Shown: positions 18,701 to 51,700 of the stretch, piece after piece | How positions within the stretch are numbered: the first letter of the stretch is position 1 | How the letters are laid out: the number at the start of each line of letters is the position of its first letter | Assembly: GCA_922989275.2 (NCBI GenBank) | Contig: OV277866.1 | Coordinates: 53,683,246-53,747,245 of the forward strand | Direction: 5' to 3' | Length of the DNA stretch: 64,000 bases | DNA from: Gari tellinella | Lineage: Eukaryota > Mollusca > Bivalvia > Cardiida > Psammobiidae | Program-made: the position numbers and the translations under genes | Notes under the pieces: model-generated | The model's database searches: none | Told to the model about the DNA's origin: nothing | The model's input: the letters and a program-made list of their open reading frames with translations, nothing else

Positions 18701-21700
18701 AACTAATTCAGCCATATATACTTTGAAAGCTTACAGCAGGGACCTCTCGTATTAATATTACTATAGTAACTAATTCAGCCATATATACTTTGCAAGCTTA
18801 CAGCAGGGACCTCTCGTATTAATGTTACTGCAGTTAACTAATTCAGCCATATATACTTTGCAAGCTTACAGCAGGGACCTCTCGTATTAATGTTACTATA
18901 GTAACTAATTCAGCCATATATACTTTGCAAGCTTACAGCAGGGACCTCTCGTATTAATGTTACTATAGTAACTAATTCAGCCATATATACTTTGCAAGCT
19001 TACAGCAGGGACCTCTCGTATTAATGTTACTATAGTAACTAATTCAGCCATATATACTTTGCAAGCTTACAGCAGGGACCTCTCGTATTAATGTTACTAT
19101 AGTAACTAATTCAGCCATATATACTTTGCAAGCTTACAGCAGGGACCTCTCGTATTAATGTTACTATAGTAACTAATTCAGCCATATATACTTTGCAAGC
19201 TTACAGCAGGGACCTCTCGTATTAATGTTACTATAGTAACTAATTCAGCCATATATACTTTGCAAGCTTACAGCAGGGACCTCTCGTATTAATGTTACTA
19301 TAGTAACTAATTCATCCATATATACTTTACAAGCTTACAACAGGGGCCTCTCGTATTAATGTTACTATAGTAACTAATTCAGCCAAACAGGGGCCTCTGA
19401 TATTGAAGTTACTATATATAGATCACTAATTTAGCCGTATATACAGTATAGGCTTACAGCAGGGGCGTCTCATATTTAAGTAACTGTTGATTACTAATTC
19501 AGCAATACGTACGGTGCTGGTCTACAACAGGGAGTTCTCATCCAGAAGTTGTAACACCAGGGATATACCCTCGTCAGTCGACAAATATGGAACAATACCA
19601 GGGTAACTGCCAGCAACATGCAGAAAGCTCCCCCTAGTGACAGAAGCAACCAGTAGTAGTTCCACTCATTCTCATAGAAACCTGTAATATATTCACAACC
19701 ACACTAAAACCTCGCTATTACAACCACTAAAACGAAGGCAAATTGGCTGTTTAATAAACAGGTTACAGTTTAAAGCAAGATGACAGCGAAACAGAAAGCT
19801 CCAAAAGGAGCTTTCTGTTTCACTGTCACCTTGCTTTAAGCGGTCACCTATCTAAAACTCCCTAATCATTAACATAAATTAGTGGTCGCAATAGAGAGGT
19901 TTTACTGTACAGTAAAACCTCGCTATAATGACCACTTAAATTGGTTAATTATTACGTGTTCTAGACAGGTGAATGCTTAAAGCAAGGTGAAAGTAAAACA
20001 GAAAGCTCCTAAAAGAGTTTTTTTTCTTTCACAATGCTTTAAGCTGTCACCTGTCTTTTATACCCCAATTAGCTTTCGTGTTAGTGGTTGTCATAGAGAG
20101 GTTTCACTGAACAACAGTATGTTGTAAACCCTAGGACTGACGACTTTGCAAATGAACTATTCCATGTTATAAATCAAGATCAGATAAAATTCCCTATTAA
20201 GGGATTTGTTTACAAAAGAATATTAATTGAATTAGTATTCACGCCATACTGTTTGGTGGAGATATAGAAGAGAGAGAGAGTGAGCCATGTTGGTACAGTG
20301 GAGAAAATGTTATTCTTTCCCGTTTAAACGCAAAAGAAACGCAAACGCATCGCAATAAAACATAGAAAAAGATAACTTTTTGACAATTTTGACTATTTAT
20401 TTTAATATGAGTAGCAAACAGTTTGGAGCCTGATCAGACGCCGGGTTACCCGGCGTCTGTTCTGACTCAAAAACTGTTTGCAATGGAAATATTAGTTTTA
20501 GCGTAAACGCGTTTATTGGGAAAGAAAAACGTTTTCTCCACTGTATAAATGTAGTTGCAGTAAACAAAGAGTATTTGAGGTGAAATAACTGTGTTAAATC
20601 ATAACAGTTTTGAGTCGGACTAGATATGGTGTGTGGGGTGGGAGCGGAGTGTGATAAGGTGAAATTATGATATCATCAGGGCTGCCATAAGTTGATAGTA
20701 AAAGTTCTAAGATTTCAATTTTTCAGACGCTATTTTACTTATCGTATCTTTACCCCATAGTCTGTTGACACATGTCTGCTTAAAACATGTTGAAAGTAAA
20801 GCAGGCGCATTAAGGCGCATTCTGCTTTACTTTAAGCCTGTTCTAAGCTACCATCTGCTAGGATAAAAATCAAGAGAAATGGCCGCCCTGTATCATTCTA
20901 ACAGTGTAATATTGAGTGTACCTGTGTTTCTATCTGTCGTTGTGGTGGGTGCGGCTGTTGTCGTAGTGATGATGTTGACGGTGACTGTAGCTGTTCCTGT
21001 TCTACTACCAACCCCATAGTTTGAAGATTTGATTTCAAATGTTTGTCCACTGGTAAACGCAGTCATTTCTTTCGCAGTGTAAATGGTACCGAGCTGGCTG
21101 ATGGCGAAGTATGTTAATCCCCCTGCAAGCATTGACTGGTCCACGGTGTAGGTTATCTCGTTATCATTGTCAGCTGCAGAGTCAATGTCTAATGCCGAAA
21201 CTGTTAAAACAGGCGTGCCAACTAGAATGTTGACTGGCAAGTAAACTGTATAGCTGGCGGATGTGAATTCTGGGGATCTTTGATTGTCATTCAGTATGTG
21301 AATGTAGAGTGTAGTGGTGTCATTGAGGCCTCCTGAGTCGACCACGGTTACAGTGCACTGGTAGTCGGTAGGTGTGCTAGAAACGTCAACGTCCATGTCA
21401 CCCCGATACACAATAGCTCCAGTGGCTTCGGTCATGTAGAATCTCTGTGTATCAGAGGCGTTGGTACAGTCTAGGTAATATTTCAACGTGTCTCCGACAT
21501 CAACTTCTACCACATTGAACAGGCTCGCTCCATCGGTTATCTGGGTACTAGACTGCAAAGTGAAAATGAGAGTTACAGTAAAACCCCTCTATTACGGACA
21601 CTAAATTGTGTTACAGTGGTAAATACGTTATTCCTACCCATTTACACGTTAATCTATGCGTAAGAAACGCATAGTGAACGGTTAACGAAAGGTTAACGCC

Positions 21701-24700: not shown

Positions 24701-27700
24701 TCTACATGGACTGTTCAGACAAACAGACATACAATATGGTTCCAGTTTACCCCCCAAAACAACATTTTGGGTTAAAACTAAGTTACTTACAAGAATGATC
24801 CAGAGTTAAATGTCTTGAAAGGAGTGAGGTAGCTTTGGGGGTTAAATGACTTTACTTACAAGAATGACCCAGAGTTAAATACATTGTTAGTTTGGATGGA
24901 AAAGGAGCCATGTAGAGCACAAAGGTTTTTGTGTCATTGTCCAGGTCCTCATATGCAAAGGTATATATAGACGTCCCTAAAGGCTCATTCTCTATGATCT
25001 GTATGGGAGACGTTGGAAAGTTTTGGAAGGTTATGGCATCATCTGACTCTGAAAGAGAAAGAGCAACTTTACTGCCATGGCCTCATCACTTTTGAACAAT
25101 TATCGTTTGCCTTCACTTCTCAAAGGACAAAGTTCACGAAGCCACCGCTTAGACCCTGTAAAATCAATCTTTATTTTCTCTTTATTTGTCAATTTCAGAT
25201 GCTGATACTCAATAGTATACATAAATCTCAACCCGAATTTAATCCACCCAAATTCAGCTTTTGACAGTTTAAAGTTTCTTGTAAATGAACCTGTAGGCCA
25301 TTACAGGCCAAAAAGCAGAATTTTGGTACAATTTATGGTAAAATCCAAGAAATCAACAATAAAGGCACAAATGCGACACAATAATTATATTATTTGAAGT
25401 AACATATCTGAATTTTGAAGTGTCAGATGTGAGCACTGTTGTTCTCGGTGGGAAGGTTCTAACTGACTCGTTACAGCCATTTTCTCAACGAAAGTGCCAC
25501 AGGACACTTCCACTTACTCCTCCACAAAAGAGCCACAAATAACATTCACTGAAGTTGTTGAATACCAATTGAAGCTTAAAGCATGGAAAAAGTAAAGCAG
25601 AAAGCTCCTTTAGGAGTTTTCTGCTTTACTTTCATCTTGATTTAAGTTGAAGCCTTCCATATAAATACAATTGGACAAAGCTGCTTTATAAATATGACTA
25701 TTGAAAATAGGAAAGGGTTGATTGGTATAAGTGATTGCACGGAACTAGCTAACCACCCTATCCCCACCACTTCTAGTTCCACCTATGAGATTGGTCAGGA
25801 TAAGAGGGAATAAACAGACGAAATCTAACATTTTCTTCATCGTGTCAGCATCAAATCCTATGGTGTAAATACTCTTTAGAATCGTCTCGAAGAGACGATT
25901 CTAATGAGTACTTACACCATAGGGTTTAACACAGAGATAAAGATTTTGGTTGATGAAAGTATCACCTTATATGGAGCACTGGTTGGTGACTCACTATAGG
26001 GGTTGTACTGTAGCTATATATGTTGAGGGCCTCAGAAAATAGTGATTTCGATCAAAATAGCTCTCTCGTTGAATAAGGTCTTTATTATTATTATTATTAA
26101 CATAATTATTATTTTTATATTATTATTTATCATTATTATTATTATTATTATTATAACCTATAAGGGAGACGACAGCAGTGTCCTTTTATTATTATTATTA
26201 TTATATCCTATTAGCGAGACGACGGCAGTGCCTGTGTCTGTATTGGTATCATCGTCTGTAGCTGCTATAACTAGTTATAAGATTATTATTGTTATTATCA
26301 TCATTATTATTATTATTATTATTTATTATTATTACCTTTTAGCGAGACATTATTATTATTATTATTATTTATTATTATTTATTATTACCTATTAGCGAGA
26401 CAACATTATTATTATTATTACCTTTTAGCGAGACAACATTATTATTATTAATATTACCTATTAGCGAGACAACATTATTATTATTATTATTATTTATTAG
26501 CGAGACAACGAAAGTGCCCGTGTCTGTGTTGGTATCCTCGTCTGTAGCCACTATAACTAGTTCATACTGGCCGTCAGTTATTGTTATTGTTTTTATTATC
26601 ATCATCATTATTATTTCTATTATTTTTATTACCTATTAACGATACGACGGCAGTGCCCGTGTCAGTGTTTGTATCCTCGTCTGTAGCCACTATAACTACT
26701 TCATACTGGTCATCGGGGTCAGTTATAAGATGTGATTTCACCTGTATGTCCCCATCTGGTACAAAGAAAACACAGGCAGTAAAACCTCTCTATTAAGAAC
26801 ACTAAATTGTGTTAATTTATAGGTGTTAACATTGCGACACTTAAAGCAAGGTGACAGTCAAGCAGAAAGTCCTTTATGAACTTATTTTCACCTTGCTTTA
26901 CGCTGTCACCTATCAATCATAGTTTTCCAATGAAAACCTAGTACAAGTATACGAACATCAATTAAATGTTGGTGTGTCCTATAAAATAAGGCATAAACAG
27001 CAAGTACATGTAAATGAATCAGCTTCCCAAAAGCGATACAACTGTACATTCTGTTACAATATTATAACATTTGTGTAAAGTAACAGCAAACAAATGTGTT
27101 GCACATATGGATACTGCTTTTTTACTTAATATCCAGTTGCACAGAAATTGTGATTTTTAAAGTTTACATACATTCCATGTTTATTTTATAAACAAAAAGG
27201 GCCGATGCTGACCAGAGATATAAGAAATGGGATAACGAGTCATCACATTGCTTTTAGTGGATATAAATCCGTAAACAACACAACAACCAGGTTCCAATGG
27301 TATAAAGCATTTGAGTTGAGGCTGGGATCGTTCTCGGTCATTTGATTGATCAGAATTGAGCTTATCCTTTATTACGACTGAAGTTAAACTTATGTTGATG
27401 TGATACCATTTTGCGTTTGGTTTTATTCAAATAATGAAATATACGCATTATTATTTAATCAAACTATGAACGTTTTGCAAGTGCATTTTGAACCTTAATA
27501 CGCATTTATTTCACTTTGTAGTTAATAAGTTTATTCTTTCGTTTCAATCCTTTTCCTAAGTATTGTATAATAACGTTGGCATGTATAAATGTAATCATAT
27601 GTACTTCTGGAAATAAATATGTTTAAACTAATAGAGATGTTTGTTAGTGCAATTTAGGGAATACATACTTTTCATGACTGTGAAAGGACATGCCGTTGTA

Positions 27701-33700: not shown

Positions 33701-36700
33701 CAAGCAAGCGGTCATTGGCCATTAGTTCTGATCATTACAGGTTGGTTAAATCGTTTCAACCTGGAGGTCAAAAGAGACAACATTCCCGTCTTCGACGGGA
33801 ACAAATAGACTCGTCCCGGGAGTCACAGATTTACAAACAGTTACAAAACATTATACAAGTATGTATAGTCTGATCTGGATTCAAGCTGTTTGTAAATGTA
33901 AGCCAAAATCCCTCCCTACAACGCCCCCTCCGTACAACGCACATATATTTGGTCTCCCATTGGCTGTTGTTGTAGAGAGGGAGCGCTGTAGTTAATCACA
34001 CTTACACGTAGTACTTAAAGCTTTCAACATAAAGGGTAGGTTAGTTGCCCAGGTAGAGTAGCAGTACCACTGGTCACTATACTCTGTCACTGTGAGGGTA
34101 TGGAGCAAGGTCTGGCTGATTGATATCTCTTGAACAGTGAGATCAGCAGGCACGTTGTCAACCACAAGAGTCTGCAATCAACACGAAGATAGGTAATCAG
34201 AGCTTCAGATAAGAGGGGTATTTCAAAAACTAAAATCTTCATTTCTATTAAACCCTATGGTGTCACTACTCATTGGAATCGTATCTTTGAGACGATTCTA
34301 ATGAGTAGTAACACCTTAGGATTTGGTGCTAAACTGAGTGAGAAAATGTTGGCTTTGTTCAGTTTACCCCCTCTTATCTGGAGGCCTAGGCAATACAGTA
34401 AAACCTCTATATAACGACCACAAACGTGTGTTAATTAATAGGTGTGTACGACAAGTGACTGCTTCAAGCAAGATGGCACATCATTGATTTAAGCTATCAC
34501 ATGTTTAATACAACATTTTGCCTTCGTTTTAATGGTCTTAATAGAGAGGTGTTACTGAATCTTATTATTTCATGTTTTAGCCAAACTAAATGCATACATT
34601 ATGTAATAAAATATAGAAAATGACAGGTAATTGAAAATATTGAAGATGTATCCAAAAATTGTGGGGCACATAGTTTAGAGCCACGATTTCCAGTAACTCA
34701 TCATATGATCTAAATTTGTAGATATCTACTCCAAACTGTTGCATGGAAACCAGGGCTCCAGATAAGAGGGAGTAAACTGAACAATATTTTCTCGCTCATT
34801 GTAGCACCAAATCCTATGTTGTTACTACTCATAAGAATCGTCTCTTCGAGACGATTCTAATGAGTAGTGACACTATATGGTTTAAACCAGAAATAAAGAT
34901 TTCAGTTTTTAAAATACTCCGCTTATCTGGAGCTCTGGATACTATAACATGATGATCAATTGAACTTATCACTAAACGTGATCAATACCACCATTAGCGC
35001 CTTGTCACAAGAGACAAATGTGTTACAATAACCCCATATGAACTAGAAAGGTGTTCCTCCGGACATGTCACTTGTGTCGCCTGATTTTGCTATTGTTTCC
35101 GCTAGTTGTTCATGTTTGACAAGGAAACAGGGGCCCATTTCATAAAACTTTGTATGACAAATGTTGTCGTAAGTCAGATTATAAAAGTCTCAATTATTAT
35201 TTCTTTCTCAATCTAATCCTGTCTTGTGACATCTTTTTGGAATCGACGATTTCAAAGAGATGTCACAAGACATGATTAGATTGAAAAATCAGAAATTAAA
35301 TGTATCTTAAAGTTTTATGAAACGGGCCCTAGAAATATTGGAATGATTTAAACAAAACTTCCGTAATACTAGCGTGTGTTGAGAATATAAGTTACAATGT
35401 ATAGAGTAACGTTTTTTTCTTGACCGTTTTTCTGCTGTTAACGTTTATTGGCACATTTTGAAAGCACAGTTATCCCAGATTAGGGCTTATTATGTATTCT
35501 TACAGACGGGTTGACACGAGTCTACACCCTTACCTATGTGCATTATTTTTATGATATTTGGGAATATGCCCTAAACGGCGTAAAAAATTGATTTTGGGAA
35601 AGAATTAAATTTTTATTTGGTCGTAAAAAGCTCACTCTGGGGAAAAAATGTAACGTAAACATGCTCAATTTCGGGCCTTGTTTTAATTAAGGACCAACCC
35701 ACCCCCACCCCCTCCCCCAAAAAACCCCCAACAAACAAACAACAACAACAACAACAAAAACCGCTGAAATATTCAGGGGGTGTATGAGGTTAGTGAAATC
35801 AGAGCTCCAGGTATGAGGAGTATTTCAAAAACTTAAATTTTTCTGCATAAAATTCAAATGAGTAGTAACACCGTATGATTTGGTCATTGGAATGAGGGAG
35901 AAACGTTTGGTTTTAAGTTTACTCCCTCTTGTCTTGGCAAATGAGAAAATTTCAGATAACGATTATCTGACAGGCCTTGTGTCTATACTCACTCCTTGGC
36001 TCACGGTCAGCGACTGAGTGGTAGTTGCTACATTGTAACACTGGTCATACACTACAAACGTGAGGGAATCTGTCCGTGGCCGATTGCTGGTACTAACAGT
36101 TATACTGCCTGTAATAGAGATATACTGCTCAAACACTACAAACGTGAGGGAATCTGTCCGTGGCCGATTGCTGGTACTAACATTTATACTGCCTGTAATA
36201 GAGATACACTGGTCGTACACTACAAACGTGAGGGAATCTGTCCGTGGCCGATTGCTGGTACTAACAGTTATACTGCCTGTAATAGAGATGCACTGGTCAT
36301 ACACTACAAACGTGAGGGAATCTGTCCGTGGCCGATTGCTGGTACTAACAGTTATACTGCCTGTAATAGAGATACACTGGTCATACACTACAAACGTGAG
36401 GGAATCTGTCCGTTGCCAATTGCTGGTACTAACAGTTAAACTGCCTGTAATAGAGATATACTGCTCATACACTACAAACGTGAGGGAATCTGTCCGTGGC
36501 CGATTGCTGGTACTAACAGTTATACTGCCTGTAATAGAGATACACTGGTCATACACTACAAACGTGAGGGAATCTGTCCGTGGCCGATTGCTGGTACTAA
36601 CATTTATACTGCCTGTAATAGAGATACACTGGTCATACACTACAAACGTGAGGGAATCTGTCCGTGGCCGATTGCTGGTACTAACAGTTATACTGCCTGT

Positions 36701-39700
36701 AATAGAGAAACACTGGTCATACACAACAAACGTGAGGGAATCTGTCCGTGGCCGATTGCTGGTACTAACAGTTATACTGCCTGTAATAGAGATACACTGG
36801 TCATATACTACAAACGTGAGGGAATCTGTCCGTGGTCGATTGTTGGTACTAACAGTTATACTGCCTGTAATAGAGATATACTGGTCATATACTACAAACG
36901 TGAGGGAATCTGTCCGTTGCCAATTGCTGGTACTAACAGTTATACTGCCTGTAATAGAGATACACTGGTCATATACTACAAACGTGAGGGAATCTGTCCG
37001 TGGTCGATTGTTGGTACTAACAGTTATACTGCCTGTAATAGAGATATACTGGTCATACACTACAAACGTGAGGGAATCTGTCCGTTGCCAATTGCTGGTA
37101 CTAACAGTTATACTGCCTGTAATAGAGATATACTGCTCATACACTACAAACGTGAGGAAATCTGTCCGTGGCCGATTGCTGGTACTAACAGTTATACTGC
37201 CTGTAATAGAGATGCACTGGTCATACACTACAAACGTGAGGGAATCTGTCCGTGGCCGATTGCTGGTACTAACAGTATTACTGCCTGTAATAGAGATACA
37301 CGGGTCATACACTACAAACGTGAGGGAATCTGTCCGTGGTCGATTGCTGGTACTAACAGTTATACTGCCTGTAATAGAGATACACTGGTCATATACTACA
37401 AACGTGAGAGAATCTGTCCGTGGGCGATTGCTGGTACTAACAGTTATACTGCCTGTAATAGAGATACACTGGTCGTACACTACAAACGTGAGGGAATCTG
37501 TCCGTGGCCGATTGCTGGTACTAACAGTTATACTGCCTGTAATAGAGATACACTGGTCATATACTACAAACGTGAGAGAATCTGTCCGTGGGCGATTGCT
37601 GGTACTAACAGTTATACTGCCTGTAATAGAGATACACTGGTCGTACACTACAAACGTGAGGGAATCTGTCCGTGGGCGATTGCTGGAACTAACAGTTATA
37701 CTGCCTGTAATAGAGATACACTGGTCATATACTGCAAACGTGAGGGAATCTGTCCGTTGCCAATTGCTGGTACTAACAGTATTACTGCCTGTAATAGAGA
37801 TATACTGCTCATACACTACAAACGTGAGGGAATCTGTCCATGGACGATTGCTGGTACTAACAGTTATACTGCCTGTAATAGAGATATACTGCTCATACAC
37901 TACAAACGTGAGGGAATCTGTCCGTGGCCGATTGCTGGTACTAACAGTTATACTGCCTGTAATAGAGATATACTGCTCATACACTACAAACGTGAGGAAA
38001 TCTGTCCCTGGCATATTGCTGGTACTAACAGTTATACTGCCTGTAATAGAGATGCACTGGTCATACACTACAAACGTGAGGAAATCTGTCCCTGGCATAT
38101 TGTTGGTACTAACAGTTATACTGCCTGTAATAGGTATACACTGGTCATACACTTCAAACGTGAGGGAATCTGTCCGTGGCCGATTGCTGGTACTAACAGT
38201 TATACTGCCTGTAATAGAGATATACTGCTCATACACTACAAACGTGAGGAAATCTGTCCCTGGCATATTGCTGGTACTAACAGTTATACTGCCTGTAATA
38301 GAGATGCACTGGTCATACACTACAAACGTGAGGGAATCTGTCCGTGGCCGATTTCTGGTACTTACAGTTAAACTGCCTGTAATAGAGATATACTGCTCAT
38401 ATACTACAAACGTGAGAGAATCTGTCCGTGGGCGATTGCTGGTACTAACAGTTATACTGCCTGTAATAGAGATACACTGGCCATATACTACAAACGTGAG
38501 GAAATCTGTCCTTGGCCTATTGCTGGTACTAACAGTTATACTGCCTGTAATAGAGATACACTGGTCATACACTACAAACGTGAGGGAATCTGTCCGTGGC
38601 CGATTGCTGGTACTAACAGTTATACTGTCTGTAATAGAGATACACTGGTCATACACTACAAACGTGAGGGAATCTGTCCGTGGCCGATTGCTGGTACTAA
38701 CAGTTATACTGCCTGTAATAGAGATACACTGGCCATATACTACAAACGTGAGGAAATCTGTCCTTGGCCTATTGCTGGTACTAACAGTTATACTGCCTGT
38801 AATAGAGATACACTGGTCATACACTACAAACGTGAGGAGATCTGTCCTTGGCCTATTGCTGGTACTAACAGTTATACTGCCTGTAATAGAGATATACTGC
38901 TCATACACTACAAACGTGAGGGAATCTGTCCGTGGCCGATTGCTGGTACTAACAGTTATACTGCCTGTAATAGAGATATACTGCTCATACACTACAAACG
39001 TGAGGGAATCTGTCCGTGGCCGATTGCTGGTACTAACAGTTATACTGCCTGTAATAGAGATATACTGCTCATACACTACAAACGTGAGGGAATCTGTCCG
39101 TGGCCGATTGTTGGTACTAACAGTTATACTGCCTGTAATAGGGATACACTGGTCATACACTTCAAACGTGAGGGAATCTGTCCGTGGCCGATTGTTGGTA
39201 CTAACAGTTATACTGCCTGTAATAGAGATATACTGCTCATACACTACAAACGGGAGGGAATCTGTCCGTGGCCGATTGCTGGTACTAACAGTTTTACTGC
39301 CTGTAATAGAGATACACGGGTCATACACTACAAACGTGAGGGAATCTGTCCGTGGACGATTGCTGGTACTAACAGTTATACTGCCTGTAATAGAGATACA
39401 CTGGTCATACACTACAAACGTGAGGGAATCTGTCCGTGGCCGGTTGCTGGTACTAACAGTTATACTGCCTGTAATAGAGATACACTGGTCATACACTACA
39501 AACGTGAGGGAATCTGTCCGTGGCCGGTTGCTGGTACTAACAGTTATACTGCCTGTAATAGAGATGCACTGGTCATACACTACAAACGTGAGGGAATCTG
39601 TCCGTGGACGATTGCTGGTACTAACCAGACGGGATTACTGCGCACAGCATGTAACGTCATTAATCTACCGCAATACGACGTGCACCAGACCATTGGAACA

Positions 39701-42700
39701 TGAATAGCATACACGAACCAAGATGGCTTCTCGATGACCGTCGCTGAATGGCCTATAGCCGATCTAGGTTATTTTAAGATATCTATGGTACTAACAGTTA
39801 TACTGCCTGTAATAGAGATACACTGGTCATACACTACAAACGTGAGAGAATCTGTCCGTGGGCGATTGCTGGTACTAACAGTTATACTGCCTGTAATAGA
39901 GATACACGGGTCATACACTACAAACGTGAGGGAATCTGTCCGTGGCCGATTGCTGGTACTAACAGTTATACTGACTGTAATAGAGATACACTGGCCATAT
40001 ACTACAAACGTGAGGAAATCTGTCCTTGGCCGATTGCTGGTACTAACAGTTATACTGCCTGTAATAGAGATATACTGCTCATACACTACAAACGTGAGGG
40101 AATCTGTCCGTGGCCGATTGCTGGAACTAACAGTTATACTGCCTGTAATAGAGATACACTGGTCATACACTACAAACGTGAGGGAATCTGTCCGTGGCCG
40201 ATTGCTGGTACTAACAGTATTACTGCCTGTAATAGAGATACACTGGTCATACACTTCAAACGGGAGGGAATCTGTCCGTTGCCAATTGCTGGTATTAGTT
40301 AACAGTTATACTGCCTGTATTAGAAATACATGTACATTAAAATACAGTGTTTCCTCCCTACACCGGCCCCCGAACAACGATTCTTTCTCTACAACTCTTG
40401 ATGCTGGTCCAAAAAATAAACAATTATGTCCGACCTTTTCACGACTGCAATATCGTCTGCTTAAAATTGTTATCTGCTGTTTTCTCAAAGTTACGTATTT
40501 GACATTGTGATAAATTTTGATAATAGAAACAAAAAGATGAATGACAATCAGTTTGAACCAGGATAAGACGCCGCATAACGCGGCGTCAGGTCTAGATTCA
40601 GACTGTTTGCAAATTTACCCTGATGGTAGGAATTTTCTCTCTCTATATCAACTACCTCCGTATAGCGCACGCCCTTTTTGTCTCACATATGGTGTTGTTG
40701 TACTGTATTATCAATCAATGTTGATACAGGAGATGAAAATGTATCCTACACATATTAACACTTTACTCCAAAGATACAGATTTATGTTTTTAATTTATTA
40801 CTCAACTGAAGAAAATAGTTCAAGATATACAGTCATGAATTTCTATATTATGACTCATTGTAGTTAGGTTTGAAGTAAGCAGAATGCGCCTTAACCTTCC
40901 TTAGCAGCCACCTATCTATTTAACACAAAATTGACATTGGCCTTTAATGGATCTGGCCCAAAATCAATATAGCTGTGTGCATCCCTGTAAGTTACTTGCA
41001 CAAAAAAAATTCGTCCTGCCATAAAACGTTCTGGGGTCCGTTTTATAAAACTTCGTACGACAAAAACGTTTGTAAGTCAAAACTTTAAAAAACATTTTTT
41101 ATTTCTCCATCTAGGCCTGTTTTGTGACATCTCCTTGGAATCGTCTTTTCCAGACGAGTCCAAGGAGATGTCACAAGATAGGTTAAGACGGAAAAATAAA
41201 TAATAATTGAGACTTTTATTATCTGTCGTACGACAACATTTGTCGTACGAAGTTTTCTGGAGCGGGCCCTTGAAATTGAAGCGTAAAATGAAGAGCTCCG
41301 ATCAGGCAAACTCACCGCTAGGTAGGTCAGCGTTGAAGTAAGCACTTGATCTTCTCTCATAGATAGATAGGGAGTTGTTCTCTGAGGTGTCGGCATCACT
41401 GTACAGGAAGCTTGTTACTGGTGTATTCTGAACTAGGTAGTCTTGTACTGTTAGGGAAGCTGAGGCTAGTGTTATGATCGGCGTCGTAGCTGTAATAATT
41501 AGTAAAATGCTGTGTAAGCTGAGGCCAGTGCATGATGGGCAATGCAGCTGTAATAATGAGTAAACAGTTTGTAAGTTGAGGTCCGTGTTTTGATGGATAT
41601 TGTATATAAGGATGTGAAAGTTGAGGCTAGTGTTAGTATCGTATAGTAGTGCAGCTGTAATTATGAGTATAAGACTGTGAAAGCTGAGGCCAGTGTGTTA
41701 TGAGGGGCATTGCAGCTGTAATGAGAAGATAAGGATGTTCGAGCGCTGAGGTCAGTGCTATGATTGGTTATGTAGCTTTAAAGGCACAATCCCGCTCAAA
41801 TTGGTGTTTAAAACGCGCAATTTCTTATATGTGTGCATTTTCTATGTATTAAAACTAAGTGAAATCGAGTGTAAGAAGCCTGACATATGCACCCACTTCG
41901 TAAAGAATCCTACCTAAATGTGTCGTATTCTTATCGTGGTGGTTTACATTATAAGCGGGTTTGTTTACAAATAAGATTACGGGCTGGTTCCGAGAACTCT
42001 CGATCGATCGCATAAAGGTCACGTGATTGATTCGGCCGCGACAATGTGTATCATTGCATCAGTTTAACGGCCAAACTTAAAGGAGTTGTCTCTCTTTGGT
42101 TGTAAAGCACTCGACTTGTTGTATAGAATTATGCAAATGAGCTTTACCGAGTATGTCCGTAAATTTTCGTCGCTATTCAAAAATAAACAAACTTGATTAC
42201 TTGTTTCCACAAATTTCACTGTTCGTTAGCAATATTGCTTCAAATATCACCACGTATTACTTCTTTTTATATGGAACGCTTACGATAGTGACATAAATTT
42301 CATGTAAGAAAAATGTTAGATTCTGTTTATGTGGGAGTAATATAGTGGCTTTAATGAAGATATAAGGTTCTGTAAGTCGAGGCCAGCGTTATGATAACTG
42401 TTGCAGCTGTGATTATTGGTGAAGAGTAAACAACGCTGAAAAATAATATAATGTTTTGATATATATTGTGGTCGTAATACAAAGTACAAGGCTGTAAAAG
42501 ATGAGGCAGATGTTAAGCTTGGCAATGTAGCTGTAATGAAGAGCATCCTATCCTGTGCAAGCTGCAACAGACGGTGTAATGATTAGCATTTTAGCTGTAC
42601 AATGAAGACTACATGGCTGTGCTAGCTAAGACTGGTGTAATGATGGGCATTGTATGTGTCGGCGTAATGATTCTTGTTATAGCTTTGATGAAGAATATAA

Positions 42701-45700
42701 GCTTTTATAGCAGAGGTCTGTGTTACGATGGGTATTGTAGATATACTGAGATCGTTCTCAAAACAAGTGCTTGGAAATAAGCTTAGATTCAACTCAAACT
42801 CTTAATAACATTGGGACCTGGCTCCGAGGTTATAAAGCGTTTGAGCTGAGTCTAAACTCATTCCAAAGCATTTGATTGGTCAGATTTGAGCCTAGGCTCA
42901 AATCTGCCCGATCAAATGCTTGGGAACACACTCAGACTCAACTAAAACGCTTTATAACCTCGGAGCCTGTACTTACATGCTATATAAGAGACTTTGATTC
43001 CATAATTTCTATCATTGTATGCCTCCACCGTACTCCAGTCATACGTGTCCCCTGGTGATTGGTCACCGTCAACAATATTAATACGTCGAAACAAATTATC
43101 CAGTGTACTGTCTGTGAAAGCTTTAGATTCGTACAGCAGCATATCATCACCCTGCATATGCCTAGGAAAAGGAAATATAGGATATGTAATGAGTCGATGT
43201 TTAAGACAAGCTGATCTCAAACGAGTCTAGAATTGAAATGTTATTGCATTAAAGCGATCCTTGGCGAGCTTAATAACTTTTCTATTCTAGACGAGTTTGA
43301 GATCAAGTTGTATCAAACATCGACGAGTGACAGATTCTTTTTCTCACATTACCAACGATTTAAGCTATTTTTAAAGCAATATATGCCTTTTTTGGAACCC
43401 TGGTGACGTCAAAAACGCCGTTATAAATAGTGACGTTTTAGTGACGTCATCAAAGTGATCTTACACATGTTGAAGATAAGATATTCGTCATCGTTGTTCG
43501 CTATAGAAAACAGGGGTAGTTATGTGAGAAATAAAATATCTAAATGACAGGTGGCTGTTTAAATCAATGTGACAGTATTATAGAAATCTCCAAAAGAAAA
43601 TTTCTGTTTTACTTTCATTTGTTTTAAGCAGTCACCTGCCGTAATCACCTAATTATTAACACAAATAAGAGGTTAGTTTTACTTTACATGTACACCAGCA
43701 TATTTATTTTATGCCTTGAAAGGGGGAATAACTGTTACTTCATCCGCATATATTAATCTTACTTATGCATTCAAAGGGGCTATAACTGTTACATGTCAGA
43801 AAAGATTCATATACAACGTTCCCTCTCTGCAACAACACGCAACGGGAGACACAAATTGTGTGCGTCGTCTGATCTGGATTAAAGATGTTAGTTACTCGTT
43901 ATTATTTTTTCCTGTCAAAGTGTCCATTACGTAATTTTGAGAAAAATAGCAGACCGCACTTTTACGCAGACGACATTGCAGCATTGAATAGGTATGGTAT
44001 TATTGTCCTGTTTACGTAACTCTGACATGGGCCGTTGTAAGTAGAGGGTCGTTGTTGGGGGCGTTGTAGAGAGGGAGCACTGTAGTTTATGCATTGAAAG
44101 GGGGAAAACTGTTACTGATACAGATCAGCCATTCTTTTTCTGAGCTGGTGTATCATTTCACACAAGCTGGCTTCAAAACTTCTAATTCTTAAAATATAAT
44201 TACATTGTATATATACTCTATAGCAACTTTCTGTACTGTTTTGTTCTGCGCTGCATTAAGCTTTTACGAGTTTGTGCTTCGGTACTGCATTATGTTACCA
44301 CTTTAGAAAGTGCTCCCTCTCCTACAACGACACTAAATGGTAGACACAGATTGTGTGTTTTTTTCGGAGGGAGTCGTTGTAGGTAGGGGAAATTAATACT
44401 TGGCTTACATTTGCCTGGTAACGCTGCGTCTTATCTGGATTCAAGCTGTTTGTCACTCATCATGATATTCATTTTATCAAAACCTCCACGTATACATGTA
44501 TATATGTGACTTTGAGAAAAACAACAGACAACAATTTTAAGCAGACGATATTTTAAGCAGACGGCAAGGGTCGTTGTACGGAGCGAAACGTTGTTGGGTT
44601 CGTTGTAGAGAGGGAACACTGTAAATGCTAATGCAGTTTCTTTGACTGGGTTGACATGCCCTTACTTTAACAGGGCTCCAGATAAGAGGGAGTAAACTGA
44701 ACAAACCCAACATTTTCTAACTCATTTCAGCATCAAATCATATGGCGTTACTACTCATTATAATCGTCTCGAAGATAATAGGGTTTAATGCATTATGCAG
44801 AAATAAAGATTTCAGCAGTTTCTTTGACAGGGTTGACTACATGCCCTAGGTAACTTACCAGCCTATGAAGTCTCCTTTCTGCACAACAATTCTGCTTGCT
44901 GCACTCACAGTTAGTGTGTTGATACCAGTAGCTACAAGTACATATATTAGCCGATGGTTATACAAACAGTTTAGCGGTGATGATTACACTTGTCTCATGC
45001 AAACAGTGAAGACCGTGATCTGAGGACTCCTAATGTTTTGCATACTCTAGAACAGTTTTCAGTGGTTTACATGTACAGTCAAACCTCTCTATTACGACCA
45101 TTTAAACGAATGGTAATTGATAGTTCAAAATTCTGGTGAAAGACAGGACGCCCATTCAGGAGCATTTCGTCTACCTGTAATCTTGCATTAAACAGTTGCC
45201 TGTCATAAACACCTAATAACCAACAAAATTACGTGGTCGTAATAGAGGGATGTTATTGTATAGTATAAATTTCTTATTGAAACCCATATAACTTACCTGC
45301 TACATTCAAATGGTTTTCTCCAATCATTTCATAAACATTTGTAGATTTCCTTCTCCACACGTGGAACTGAATAGTTCCTATTTTCCCCGCATTTATTTGC
45401 CATTGGGTCACAACCCCACAACAAGAGAACGTGTAGCCCGCTGACTCTACCATATAGGTGAAAGCTGCAACAAAGTAACACATCAGCGTTGAAAATTATG
45501 TAAAGCTGCCCTCAAATAATTACTTTGTATAGCACCTTGAGCAAGTTACAGTGGAGAATCTGTTATTCTTTCCCAATAAACGCGTTTACGCTAAAACTAT
45601 TATTTGCAGTGCAAAAAGTTTGGAGCCAGATCAGACGCCGGGTAACCCGGCGTCTGATCAGGCTCCAAACTGTTTGCCACCAAGATAAACAAGAATTATC

Positions 45701-48700
45701 AGAATTGTCCAAAAGTTGTTCTTTTCTACGTTTTAGTGCTTTGCGTTTGCGTACGTTTGCGTTTAAACGGGAAAGAATAACAGATTCTCCACTGTAATCA
45801 TCGTTAACCCTTTCACTGCCAATTTTTTCGTGAGAGTTTTAGCCCTTCACCGTTTAATTGTCCTCTGCTTTACTTTTGTTGTCTGTAATTACGTTTCAAA
45901 GAGAAAAAATAAGGCAGTATGACTAAAGAAATTTCAAAACGAGTGCCAAACAGTTTGGGTCCTGTTTAGACGCCGCGTTACACGCTTTTAAGCGTCATTG
46001 AGTGCGAAATGGTTAAACTCTGATAAGGCCTGGGTATTTTTTAACAACCAGTTACGTAATAAACTGAATGGTATATACCATTCAGTTTATTACGTAATTA
46101 GTTGTTAAAAAATACCCAGGCCTTATCAGTACACAGTACGTTCGACTTTTGGGCTGCTTGATAGTAAAACTGGTCATATATAAGATATGATCCAAGGTTT
46201 TATAAAGCATTTTGAGTTGAGTGCGAGATCATACTCAAGCATTTTATTGGTAAATTTGACCAAACGCTCAAACCTGACCAATAAAATGCTTCAGAACGAT
46301 CTTAGCCCCAACCCCAAACCCTTTTTAACCTTGGAAAATGTACTTCTATTTTTGCCGATTCACAAATTCTAAAGAAAGTACGAGTATAAAGGGGTATAAT
46401 TCATAAATATTTGTGACATAGTTATGTACCTTGTGTCATTTCATGAGGGTGATGACGAGAAAGATCATATTTTTCTTTCAAACTAATCCAATCAGAAATG
46501 AAAGAAGGAACATCACGAAGTAGACTGTGTCATTGCGTGGTAACATTGACAGTAATTAAAATAAGTATAAAGTAGAAAGGGGAATAACTTATTGCTGTTA
46601 CTAGTAGTAAATTGGATGAAACTGAACACTATAGTGAAGCTTTGAACAGAATAAGGCAAAATAGTACATAATTAGTACATGTATTATACGAATTCTATTT
46701 ATAAAGGTGCATAATTCGTTAAAAGTTTTGACAGAGTTATGGGCATTGTGTCATTTTATCTTGGTGACGAGGAATTCATAATCCTTTTAAGGGGGTAGGT
46801 GGCACCTTTGGAAAGTAATTATTAAATTCTTCAAACTTTGCATACAGACAGTAAAATTAGTTTCTATGACAAAACTGGTGAAAAAAGTGGGGGTACCGGA
46901 CCATTCTTTTTCACAATTTGAGATTTTTCAAGGCTACCCCCCAAAAATTGAAGCTTCACAAAAACTACTTTTTTGTACTACGGATTTTAAAACTTTATCT
47001 AAACAATCTATCTGTACAAAATGTATCCTAATTTAGATAGATAGATATGATTTTATTCTTCCTTCAGACTAACAAGTCCATGAGGCATGTAATGCATGTT
47101 GTAAACAAACAATGGCATGTAATACATAAACAAACAAACAGTTATGACAATAAAGATGCATTTAGCGGAGAAGATGTAAGTAAAGAAAAAATTAAAATTA
47201 TGATTTCAGTGATATTGACTTTAATCAGAATTGATATCATTATCACCATTATCATAACTTAATTTTCTTAAATCAAATATCTATTATATTTGTGTTAGAA
47301 AATACTGATGTCATAAGAATAAAATATATCTTATACTAGTAACATTTAAACAACTATTGGAACTCGAATTTAAATTAAAACATTCATTTGCACCGAAAAC
47401 TTATACTAGTAACATTTAAACAACTATTGGAACTCGAAGTAAACCAAAAACATTCATTTACATAGAAAACCTTTACAACCCAGCAAACAGACTAAACGTA
47501 GACTGAACTACTCCAAACAAGCAGTTCAACCTGGTACACTCCTTTTGCATGTAAGTACGTACATGTAATCATGAAGAATTTGAATCATCTTCATCATAAC
47601 TACAGTAATAGTCATCAGATTAAAGAGGTTTAGCTTGAAATGCATAGTGAACAAACATTGATAAATTTCTAACAGTCTTAACATCAAAACTAGTCATTAA
47701 TTTGGTAAATTTCAACATACTTGGCCTTTTCCAATAATATTCTGAAATATATTTTATTCTTAGATCTTGGAATTGAATACATTCTAAAACAAAATGAAAT
47801 TCATCTTCCAATGTGGAACATGCACTACATTTTCTATCATTGAATGCTATTGGCAATGGTTTATTCCATCTCCCTGTTTCAACTGCTAACCTATGAGAAG
47901 ATAATCTAAGTCTACTCATAGATGTACAAAACTTCCCTACATTAACAATATTTAGGTATGGTTGTATTCCAAAATTGGATATTTTTCTGTAACACAGAGC
48001 TCTACTTGATTCATTAAGCCTATCATTCCAATTCTGTACAAACTGATCATTTAACCTTTGTTTTACAAGTAATATAAACATTTTTGCATCACCGACAGTT
48101 TGTGATAACCAAACGTGGTAGAACCCTAAGCGACAAATAAGATCTTTCAATAGGAGAACACCAGTTCACATAATTATTTATTTCATGCTCATCTTTCAGC
48201 AAACGATATATTTTTGTTATATATTTATCTTCTTTTGTATGTAAAATCTTAACCCAGTACTTAATAATATTTAAGGATCTTTTAGTTTGGTATGTAAATC
48301 TTCCTAGCTCTCCATAAATGAAATCATTTTGAGTCGTTCGTTTTACACCTAAAAGTATTTTGCAAAATTGTAGGTGGGTCCTTTCGATAGAAGGTGCATT
48401 CGAGAAGCCCCATACCTCACTACCATAATTCAGTATTGGACTTATTAGTTTATCAAACAGTTCTAATTTGTGAGATGGGCTTATATATGTAAACTTATGT
48501 AAGTGTTTATTCATCTTAAATATAGCCTTGTGTGCTTGACCCGCTAACGCAATTTGGGTATGCTGAAACGACCCACCAGATGTAAAAGTAACCCCTAAAT
48601 ATGTGAATTTGGTAAGGATTTCTATTTCTGTACCGTCATAATAAAACTTTTGATGAGAATGTAGTTTCCCACCTTTTCTGAATACCATTATTTTTGTTTT

Positions 48701-51700
48701 ATTTGTGTTTACCTTTAGTTTCCACGTATTGCAATATTCTTGAAGAATATTTAACCCTTTTTGTACCTGCGATGCATTTTCTGCAAACAGTACAATGTCA
48801 TCTGCGTATAGTATTAAAAATACTTTAAATAAATCTATATTTAAACCATCTACACCACCTTTGATGTGTTCATCTTCTAGATCATTTAAAAACATTGAAA
48901 ACAGAAAAGGCGATAAACACACACCTTGTCTTACACCTAAAGTGCATGGCATAGTATCACCAAGCTTATTATGGTATTTTACTCTTGATTTAACACTTTT
49001 GTACATCGATTGTATTATGTTAAGCATATTTCTTCTGACACCTAATTTTATTAATTTGTACCACATATTTTCACGAACTACATAATCAAAGGCTTTTGTA
49101 AAATCATCAAATGTACAAAATAATTGCTTTCTCCTATTAATGAAACTTGATATAAGACCATTTAAAACAAAAATATTATCTACAGTACTCATATTAGCTC
49201 TGAACCCAGCTTGGGCTTCAACATATACGTTATAATTTTCAGCCCAGTTTTGCAATCTATTATTTAATACTCTAGTAAATAATTTTCCGATGCAGCTTAA
49301 TAATGTGATTCCTCTATAATTCGTTGCATCATCTGGATTCCCTTTTTTATGCAGTGGTATTATATATCCCTCAGACCATCTGTCCGGAAAATAACCCAAT
49401 CTAAATATCTTGTTAAACATAGATTGGAGAACAGGCATGAGAATTTGCTCTGCATTTATTAAGAATTCATTGAGTATTAAATCTGGACCTGCCGATCGAT
49501 TGTTTTTTAACTGTTTAATAGCTTTATGAATCTCTTCATTCAAAATATCCTTATTAAGTTCATCAAACATAATATTAAATTCATGTTTTTCATATCTTTA
49601 AATAAAATGCAGTACATCTTCATCTGGAGTAAAGAAAGGATCACTAGAATTGTTAATAGTTTTGAAGTACTTTTCAAAAGCTGACAATGGAATATTTGCT
49701 GGTTTAATGCCAGCAGTTTCCTTGAGTAAATTCCAATATTCTCTGGCATTCTTTCTTTTTGCATTTACCATAGTAAGAAAAAACCCTGAAAATAAAGTTT
49801 TTTCAAGATCCACAATAAAAATGTTTGATTTCACCGGAAAGGAGTAAAGTTTACCCCACCCACTTTGTTCTAATGGGAGAAAAAGGCACAGTGAAACTTG
49901 CCCTACAAATTGTAGCAAATTAAATACCAACTTTTTTATTTGTTGATTTTAGCCTTGCAAACATTAAGTTTTAGTGAAATAGCAAATAAAAACACAGGGT
50001 CCCGGATCTTTAAAAAAAGATATAGATCATTTTATTAAAAAAATCCATTTTTTCTCATTTTTTCACTTTTTGGTGTATTTTTACCAAAAATTTTTTTTTT
50101 TCAAAAAGATATCATTTGATCTATTGAATTATCTATAATTTATACTAAAACTGTACTACCATGAACATTTCATGCTTATACTCTGAGAAATTGAAATGAA
50201 ATCGGATGTAACACAATGCAACCTACCTATGAAAACGGTGTATGCTGTAAACTACGAATAGGACATAAAACTTAAAAAGTCCCGTCCCGAACGAAAATCA
50301 AATTTTTCCCGGGAAAAAAGTATTTTATGACTGTATGCATTCACCAAAAATGAGTTCTTAACATTTTTCGAAAAATGAGTTCGTAAAATATTTCGGAAAT
50401 TTCATAATGCTCAAAAAGACAGGCCGACATCCTTAATCAAATCAACTCATCAGGCATCTAAGTGGTAAAGAGTTTTGAGCCCTATAATCAGATTTTTTAC
50501 ATTCAGGAAATTCACCGTGCGGCTGTAACTGTAAGTAAACTATTTACCGCGGTTGACGTCTGGCCCAGAAGATATGACTCCAGCACTCGGATCAGATGAT
50601 CCAGCCGTAAAGGTACCGGCTCCGCACACTTGTGTAGCTGAAAATAAAGAACAAGAGCATCACGGTGACACAAAATACATCCGCCATGGTGAAAGTACCC
50701 GCCAAGTAAATGATACGCAGGCAAAACGCAAGATTCGGTTTGAAAACAATGTTCCCTCCCTTAAACAGCCCTCCTTACAACAACGCTTTTCGCAGGTCAC
50801 TAAACTAAACAATTATGTCTAACGCTTTTACTGGTGCAATATCGTTTAATTTAAAGTGTCGTGTGCTGTTTTTCTCAAAGTTACATATAAGTGGACATTT
50901 TAACAGGATAAATAATATAATTACGAGTGACAAATAGCTTGATAGGCGGCGTCTGGTCTGGATTCAAGCTGTTTGCAAATGTAAGCCATGTCTTAATTTG
51001 ACCTCCCTATAACAACTCCCTACGAACAACACGTGTACACAATTTGTGTTTCCCATTGGGTGTCGTAGAGAGGGAGCACAGTTTATGAGATACAGTGGAG
51101 AATCTGTTATTCTTTCCCGTTTAAACGCAAACGTACGCAAACGCAAAGCACTAAAACGTAGAAAATAACAACTTTTGGACAATTCTGATAATTCTTGTTT
51201 ATCTTGATGGCAAACAGTTTGGAGCCTGATCAGACGCCGGGTTACCCGGCGTCTGATCTGGCTCCAAACTGTTTGCACTGCAAATAATAGTTTTAGCGTA
51301 AACGCGTTTATTGGGAAAGAATAACAGATTCTCCACTGTATGAGACTTTGGATGGTAACTACTTATGTGACTGCGGACAGACGAACGGACAGAGGGAGGG
51401 ACAGGTTTTTAAAGTCTTTCTTTGACTGCAAGCAATGAGCAATTTAAACATTGCTCTTTCAATGTTTAATTCCAATATGGGTGCAGCTGAGTTTCCAATT
51501 GAAAATAATTGTACATTATACAGTAGAGTTCTATATTGTGTTACGGTGAACTATCAAAAATTTAATTCGCAGTGTTTCTAGTTACAGCCAGACTTGTATT
51601 CTGCAAACACTAAAAAAAACAACACATTTGTAGTATTTGTGACAGGTGGCAGCTTAATGCAGTAGGAGTCCAATAGGAGTCTTCTGCATTTCCTTTTACC

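What the first reader, a model, noticed from the sequence alone, without database searches (positions are those of the whole stretch)
35993..40314. In-frame tandem array of about 49 splice acceptors before one cadherin exon
Seen: each 84-bp unit, on the gene strand, holds TCTCTATTACAG|G followed by the first 68 or so bases of exon 7. In the block next to the exon, 42 acceptors lie at exact 84-base spacing with no stop in the gene's frame. All have the phase that exon 6 requires. Known: AG acceptors after a pyrimidine-rich tract compete for a single upstream donor. Inference: exon 6 may be joined to any of them, giving a family of proteins that differ by multiples of 28 residues (936 to about 2084), or the last one may always be used and the array may be silent intron. 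The repeats would be part-intron in origin (ISIT is translated intron sequence). I know of no described system in which a minisatellite multiplies a splice acceptor like this.
Basis: partly seen in the sequence, partly recalled or inferred. Interest (0 to 1): 0.95.

Follow-up and report, generated by a model that had tools for sequence, protein, structure and literature searches.

The report
Exon-edge minisatellite with 49 splice acceptors
In what is likely a clam-like (bivalve) genome, a stretch covering the end of one intron and the start of one cadherin exon is repeated about fifty times, so 49 acceptor-like splice sites stand in a row before that exon; the cell likely uses mainly the last one or few, which would make most of the array silent intron, and a ladder of longer proteins is possible but untested.

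Summary
On the minus strand, 48 TTACAG acceptors plus one diverged acceptor precede exon 7 of a cadherin-type gene (16 exons modelled in one open frame; homologues in four clams). The last 42 acceptors are 84 nt apart and stay in frame to exon 7; the outer seven run into stops. The 84-nt unit is about 71 nt of exon 7 plus about 13-16 nt of intron 6.

Four clam homologues carry one copy of the segment. The stop-free frame is no evidence of coding: about 1.5% of possible substitutions would make a stop, and an antisense frame is equally open. Variants among units show no protein-level constraint: an Asp and a Cys identical in all eight homologues aligned are lost in 16 and 15 of 46 units. No acceptor copy has been lost.

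Most likely this is a lineage-specific exon-boundary minisatellite in which the last acceptor(s) serve the canonical protein, with minor leakage upstream. The human ABCA7 VNTR is a counterpart for a donor site. The same gene has a donor-copying array after exon 15 and a decayed acceptor-copying array before exon 6. No RNA was available, so the ladder remains open.

The parts
41316..41459 (-). exon 6 (phase-1 donor GCG|GTGAGT after 41316; a second in-phase acceptor 12 nt further in is possible), first half of the cadherin repeat
   Evidence: gene model; matches to clam proteins
40315..40350 (-). 3' end of intron 6 before the outermost acceptor; source of the intronic 16 nt of the unit; branch-like TTAAT lies outside the unit
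   Evidence: sequence; 14 of 16 identity to the unit; branch motif recalled
39786..40314 (-). outer block: acceptors 1-7, non-productive (stop after 6 aa from acceptor 1; acceptors 2-7 stop at the insert)
39625..39785 (-). 161-nt insert flanked by 9-bp direct repeat TTAGTACCA, transposon-like insertion inside the array
36109..39553 (-). inner block: 42 acceptors at exact 84-nt spacing, open frame to exon 7; 41 full units of 31 types
35993..36108 (-). exon 7 as read from the last acceptor (116 nt; donor GGA|GTGAGT), second half of the cadherin repeat; the copy whose tail is unique
34006..34171 (-). exon 8, phase 0, follows exon 7 in frame
   Evidence: 66% identity to P0001
18100..19532 (-). related array: 67-bp unit starting inside exon 15 (last 20 nt + GTACGT donor), copies of the donor region in intron 15
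   Evidence: TRF 18262-19385; units; score 60 vs maximum 23 of 500 shuffles; donor scores
26150..26755 (-). related array: exon 11 and partial copies of its 3' end with repeated TAG|GTAATA / AAG|GTAATA donors in TAA-rich repeats
41440..42782 (-). related decayed array of ~60-bp units in intron 5: five clear copies and up to five weaker ones; last copy = acceptor of exon 6
   Evidence: five copies 47-68 vs maximum 39 of 200 shuffles; no clear period in the autocorrelation

Best explanation
This is a minisatellite whose unit spans the intron 6/exon 7 boundary of a likely bivalve cadherin gene, so it carries 49 acceptor-like sites, of which the last one or few likely make the normal protein while the rest are likely spliced out as silent intron, with minor predicted leakage that would add 28 residues per unit. 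How it works: (1) shown: about 71 nt of exon 7 and about 13-16 nt of intron 6 form the unit; TGT shared by exon and intron sits at the join. (2) inferred: one tandem duplication, then unequal exchange, enlarged it; units 1-3 apart are slightly more alike than distant ones. (3) shown: the unit's acceptors score within the range of the gene's other acceptors; the ancestral branch-like region is not in the unit, so inner acceptors would need an exon-derived branch site (TATGAC, A 20 nt before the AG; predicted). (4) shown: acceptors 1-7 lead to stops, so an intact protein must come from acceptors 8-49. (5) inferred: recognition across the exon (116 nt from the last acceptor, 200 from the one before, +84 each) would favour the last few. 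(6) shown: four clam homologues have one copy, and many units have lost residues that the homologues keep, as expected if the extra units are rarely or never selected as protein.
For: Gene: 16 exons in one frame; Pfam cadherin 2.1e-11; 14 of these 16 exons get a clam tblastn match at E < 0.5, exons 17 and 18 do not (exons B and 11 only at 0.002 or weaker); no other close copy (47 of 48 matches in this gene, one elsewhere at 29%). P0001-P0004 have one copy at exon 6|7. Constraint: 39 distinct variants in 46 units = 25 nonsynonymous, 14 synonymous, 0 stop; expected synonymous 25-28%, P = 0.09-0.17. Asp and Cys of YDxC, identical in all 8 homologues aligned (of 35 found), lost in 16 and 15 of 46 units; 5 of 6 positions identical in the four clams vary against 9 of 17 others (P = 0.34); BLOSUM of variants no milder than of all possible changes (-0.84 vs -0.56, P = 0.36). 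No acceptor AG lost. Acceptor scores 5.2-11.3, other acceptors of the gene -1.4 to 11.8. Precedent ABCA7: exon-proximal donor canonical, one-unit retention 2 +/- 1% as I read the passage. Exon definition. The decayed array before exon 6 shows acceptor copies rotting in this gene.
Against: No RNA. The last acceptor (score 7.5) is a weaker variant than the commonest one (9.5). In PMC9225289 3' splice sites overall favour the upstream site; with long flanking introns that preference is significantly reduced, and of the hybrid classes only the long-short one is said to mimic exon definition. No indel in 41 inner units against 38 distinct substitutions hints at frame keeping (P = 0.01 against the whole exon 15 array, 0.24 against its 14 core units). 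The last 9 nt of the unit are invariant (P = 0.010 for that stretch named in advance, 0.34 for any run of 9). 28 of 46 units do keep Leu, Asp and Cys, and synonymous variants are somewhat in excess, though not significantly. ABCA7 concerns a donor, in human.
Confidence: 0.6

Rival explanations
1. Acceptor ladder with real output: exon 6 joins many of the 42 productive acceptors, giving a family of cadherins differing by multiples of 28 residues that varies between cells and individuals.
For: 42 intact in-frame acceptors scoring as well as the gene's own; no indel in the inner block; invariant last 9 nt; AF2 of five units plus exon 7 gives a regular beta structure, pLDDT 78, pTM 0.79; UBC shows such stochastic ladders exist.
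Against: One copy in four clam homologues; no protein constraint in the units; no array protein in a database of 5.8 billion for lengths 672-2140 (the 7992 best-sharing candidates scored, residues 1040-1223 of the ORF; the species itself is not visibly annotated there); best PDB match of the model has TM 0.29 and the highest TM among the 50 listed is 0.42, and AF2 is reported to give confident but unrealistic beta-solenoids on repeats (PMC11795689, listing only); long exons would be poorly recognised (recalled).
Confidence: 0.17
2. The array harms the gene: the spliceosome mostly uses outer acceptors, whose transcripts hit stops and are degraded, or skips exon 7 (frameshift to exon 8), so the allele is weak or null.
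For: Acceptor 1 alone keeps the ancestral intron end, and it stops after 6 residues; exon 7 is 116 nt, so skipping shifts frame; longer ABCA7 VNTRs go with lower expression and more skipping of the next exon.
Against: The 16 modelled exons are intact and in one frame, so the gene has not decayed; inner acceptors score well.
Confidence: 0.15
3. Assembly artefact: repeat number or the array itself is wrong.
For: Tandem arrays are easily mis-sized; only one assembly is seen.
Against: 31 different unit types among 41 inner units, an insert inside the array, clean flanks; found at one place only.
Confidence: 0.05

Closest known systems
ABCA7 intron 18 VNTR (human; PMC5954066, passages read)
   Same: A minisatellite starting at an exon edge copies a splice site in its units (25 bp, about 12-427 units); the exon-proximal site is canonical and a one-unit retention isoform occurs. 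The exon 15 array of this gene has a similar donor layout.
   Different: Donor, not acceptor; the 25-nt unit shifts frame; the passages read mention no exon sequence in the unit. Here the unit is 84 nt, in frame and mostly exon-derived.
UBC tandem dual-specific splice sites (PMC10809524, abstract and sections 7 and 9 read)
   Same: Splice sites at fixed in-frame spacing in a tandem repeat give products differing by whole units; a ladder was seen by RT-PCR.
   Different: UBC sites are AGGT and serve as both donor and acceptor, each unit is a whole protein; here 0 of 49 acceptors are followed by GT and the unit is part of one domain plus intron.
Human internal tandem repeats at exon-intron boundaries (PMC2812944, passages and section 7 read)
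   Same: Minisatellites at exon-intron boundaries alter splicing and protein length.
   Different: On average 30-bp units repeated 4 times, in segmental duplications; here 84 bp, about 50 times, in a gene without a close second copy.
Cadherin-type proteins of clams (P0001 Mercenaria, P0002 Mactra, P0003 Mya, P0004 Ruditapes)
   Same: Probable orthologues: 41-45% identical, over 91-100% of the model for three and 60% for Ruditapes; the exon 7 segment aligns without gaps in three of four (two extra residues in Mactra).
   Different: One copy of the segment, no array product.

Membership tests
Exon-boundary VNTR (ABCA7 type) | repeat unit contains a splice site and array abuts the exon | tested here: met
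Exon-boundary VNTR (ABCA7 type) | copy number differs between individuals | not testable with these tools
   one assembly only; units 1-3 apart are slightly more alike and 2 of 40 neighbours identical, which suggests recent exchange
Exon-boundary VNTR (ABCA7 type) | exon-proximal site canonical, neighbour copies leak | not testable with these tools
   no RNA data
Dual-specific splice-site array (UBC type) | AGGT at each unit boundary | tested here: not met
   AG is followed by GC (47), TC (1) or AC (1) in 49 of 49 (site list)
Dual-specific splice-site array (UBC type) | each unit encodes a complete protein module | tested here: not met
   unit = part of one cadherin repeat plus translated intron
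Tandem alternative exons (Dscam type) | each unit has its own acceptor and donor | tested here: inconclusive
   a donor-like site at unit position 11 (ACT|GTTAGT) scores 4.5, like the gene's own exon 7 donor (4.2), and its GT is kept in 46 of 46 units, but it would make an 11-nt, frame-shifting exon; the GT at position 58 (3.0) is lost in 10 of 46
NAGNAG tandem acceptors | acceptors 3 nt apart (definition recalled) | tested here: not met
   84-nt spacing
Cadherin superfamily | cadherin (EC) domains, transmembrane helix | tested here: met
   PF00028 2.1e-11; the Mercenaria homologue's model (pLDDT 61) matches a protocadherin ectodomain at 1.7e-29 and has a helix at 849-876; the exon 6-7 repeat alone gives no Pfam hit

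The most novel reading that the evidence does not exclude
The array is a natural splice-acceptor ladder: one donor competes over 42 productive acceptors, so each cell and each individual displays its own length distribution of one adhesion receptor (about 936 to 2084 residues), set by a fast-mutating minisatellite.
Probability: 0.13. Interest if true: 0.9.

Novelty: new variant of a known kind. Interest (0 to 1): 0.55.

Why it matters
It is a ready-made natural experiment on acceptor choice: 49 acceptors, nearly identical, at fixed spacing, facing one donor, with sequence tags in many units (31 types in 41) so that most junctions can be told apart. It would test directly whether the spliceosome counts from the intron side or from the exon side, and shows how a minisatellite can grow across a coding boundary without destroying the gene's frame.

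Tried and rejected
Open frame as proof of coding: rejected. Units as separate exons: not favoured; the only donor-like site of fair score that is kept, at unit position 11 (4.5), would give an 11-nt frame-shifting exon, and the one at position 58 is lost in 10 of 46 units. Dual-specific sites: rejected, no AGGT. A general tendency of minisatellites to seed at exon edges: 5 of 32 tested boundaries (E6 acceptor, E7 acceptor, E11, E12 and E15 donors) have a nearby copy spanning the junction at z >= 8, but so do 33 of 200 random positions outside the exons; leaving out exons and the five arrays, 27 of 400 against 5 of 32, P = 0.08 (at z >= 6, 38 of 400, P = 0.20). No enrichment is claimed. TRF on the 30 loci kept (98,205 bases, overlapping, of 150 scored matches) of cadherin domains in this genome gave two small arrays of period 15 or more and 2.5 or more copies. 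Indel depletion: inconclusive. Structure of the repeat: uninformative. Protein search with exons C-9: 371 candidates, none at E <= 0.001; array protein: none of 7992 scored. Rfam at gathering thresholds: none. Pfam hits of the repeat (YqaH, SPO24 and others) have no stretch passing on its own and are treated as repeat artefacts.
Full report
Check. The array is real. One search finds 48 TTACAG sites between 40400 and 35950 on the minus strand; with one diverged site, TTCTAATACAG, at the outer edge there are 49. The 48 were found by their motif, but 46 of 47 intervals are 84 nt and the other, 254, is 84 plus a 170-nt gain, so no copy has lost its acceptor. The last 42 form an unbroken block. TRF reports 51 copies. 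A 1000-base array query gave 7 matches, all at this place, in the 1.6-Gb genome (the tool calls its counts lower bounds).

The gene. I rebuilt 16 exons from splice signals and compared them by tblastn with four clam proteins: 14 of 16 get a match at E < 0.5 (exons B and 11 only weakly), exons 17 and 18 none. The same call marks a possible exon 2 at 50626-50552 (E 3.2). The joined frame has no stop until exon 18. Pfam sees cadherin (2.1e-11; the model protein was typed in). One search found 35 proteins at E <= 0.001 among 7991 scored; the best are Mercenaria (45%), Mactra (41%), Mya (41%) and Ruditapes (42% over 60%), named by their sources. The host is therefore probably a bivalve near these clams (inference). 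A model of the Mercenaria protein (8 rows, pLDDT 61) matches protocadherin ectodomains at 1.7e-29. A search with 329 residues in the own genome gave 48 matches: 47 in this gene, one elsewhere at 29% identity.

Origin of the unit. Exon 7 read from the last acceptor equals the unit consensus for 71 nt and then leaves it. The rest of the unit, TGTATCTCTATTACAG, is 14 of 16 identical to the intron end before the outermost acceptor; the two parts overlap by TGT. So the unit is an exon-plus-intron-end duplicate. The branch-like TTAAT of the old intron end lies upstream of the copied part. Inner acceptors would need another branch site; TATGAC in the exon-derived part is a candidate (motif knowledge recalled). 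Its A is changed in 3 of 46 units.

What can be made. Read from exon 6, acceptor 1 gives six residues and a stop; acceptors 2-7 run in one ORF into a stop at a 161-nt insert with a 9-bp flanking repeat; acceptors 8 to 49 are open through exon 7.

Is the array kept as protein? Among 46 full units there are 39 distinct variants: 25 nonsynonymous, 14 synonymous, none a stop. The expected synonymous share is 25-28%, so P is 0.09-0.17, and the expected number of stops is about 0.6. The antisense strand has one stop-free frame too. Two residues identical in all eight homologues aligned, Asp and Cys of YDxC, are lost in 16 and 15 units; 28 of 46 units keep Leu, Asp and Cys together; five of six positions identical in the four clams vary. 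Against this, there are no indels in 41 inner units and the last 9 nt of the unit never vary; both hints fail under the stricter control.

Are the acceptors good? With a matrix from the gene's 15 other acceptors, the array acceptors score 5.2-11.3, median 9.4; the others score -1.4 to 11.8 when each is left out in turn; the last acceptor scores 7.5. The matrix is small and no substitute for a trained predictor. A donor-like site at unit position 11 scores 4.5 and keeps its GT in 46 of 46 units, but it would make an 11-nt frame-shifting exon.

How it likely works. One duplication over the boundary, then unequal exchange, likely built the array. In long introns sites are recognised across the exon; PMC9225289 (abstract and section 9) concludes this, but for 3' sites its data show an overall upstream preference that is only significantly reduced with long flanking introns, so it supports and does not force use of the last acceptors. 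ABCA7 gives a natural donor counterpart with the exon-proximal site canonical and one-unit retention at 2 +/- 1%, as I read the passage. Together with single-copy homologues this makes the last one or few acceptors the best guess, with a weak ladder. It is a guess until RNA is seen.

Other arrays in the same gene. Exon 15 runs into a 67-bp array whose first copy is the last 20 nt of the exon and its donor; exon 11 is followed by partial exon copies and repeated GTAATA donors; intron 5 holds a decayed ~60-bp array, five clear copies and up to five weaker ones, ending in the exon 6 acceptor (its autocorrelation shows no clear period); the exon 12 donor is duplicated once. Controls show that exon edges are not significantly richer in such copies than other positions. 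The decayed array before exon 6 suggests that acceptor copies are not kept once formed.

Literature. Eight paper searches were answered. None listed a minisatellite that multiplies an acceptor about 49 times in frame; this is a statement about those listings only, in open-licence papers.

Verdict. A striking, confirmed structure of a known kind (exon-boundary VNTR), in an extreme acceptor form; its protein ladder is possible but not favoured by the sequence evidence.

Noticed in passing
window 18100-19532 (minus): 67-bp minisatellite (TRF 16.7 copies) that starts inside exon 15 of the same gene and repeats its donor region, like the ABCA7 VNTR.
   Followed up: partly
window 26150-26755 (minus): Exon 11 followed by partial exon copies and TAA-rich repeats with five further GT donors and two copies whose donor is broken.
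   Followed up: partly
window 41440-42782 (minus): Decayed ~60-bp array in intron 5 (five clear copies) whose last copy is the acceptor of exon 6; not reported by TRF.
   Followed up: partly
window 24740-24900 (minus): Exon 12 donor and its surroundings duplicated once in tandem.
   Followed up: no
window 39625-39785: 161-nt insert with 9-bp flanking direct repeat inside the array; no other full copy in the window or the loci checked; the genome search for it did not complete.
   Followed up: partly
window 47620-49948 (minus): Long reverse-transcriptase-like ORFs (LINE type, named from recall of motifs) upstream of exon A, probably within an intron of the gene.
   Followed up: no
G000 C6 and C3: Many cadherin matches in single open frames of about 900-1000 residues, most on contig C6: a protocadherin-like expansion (inference).
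   Followed up: no
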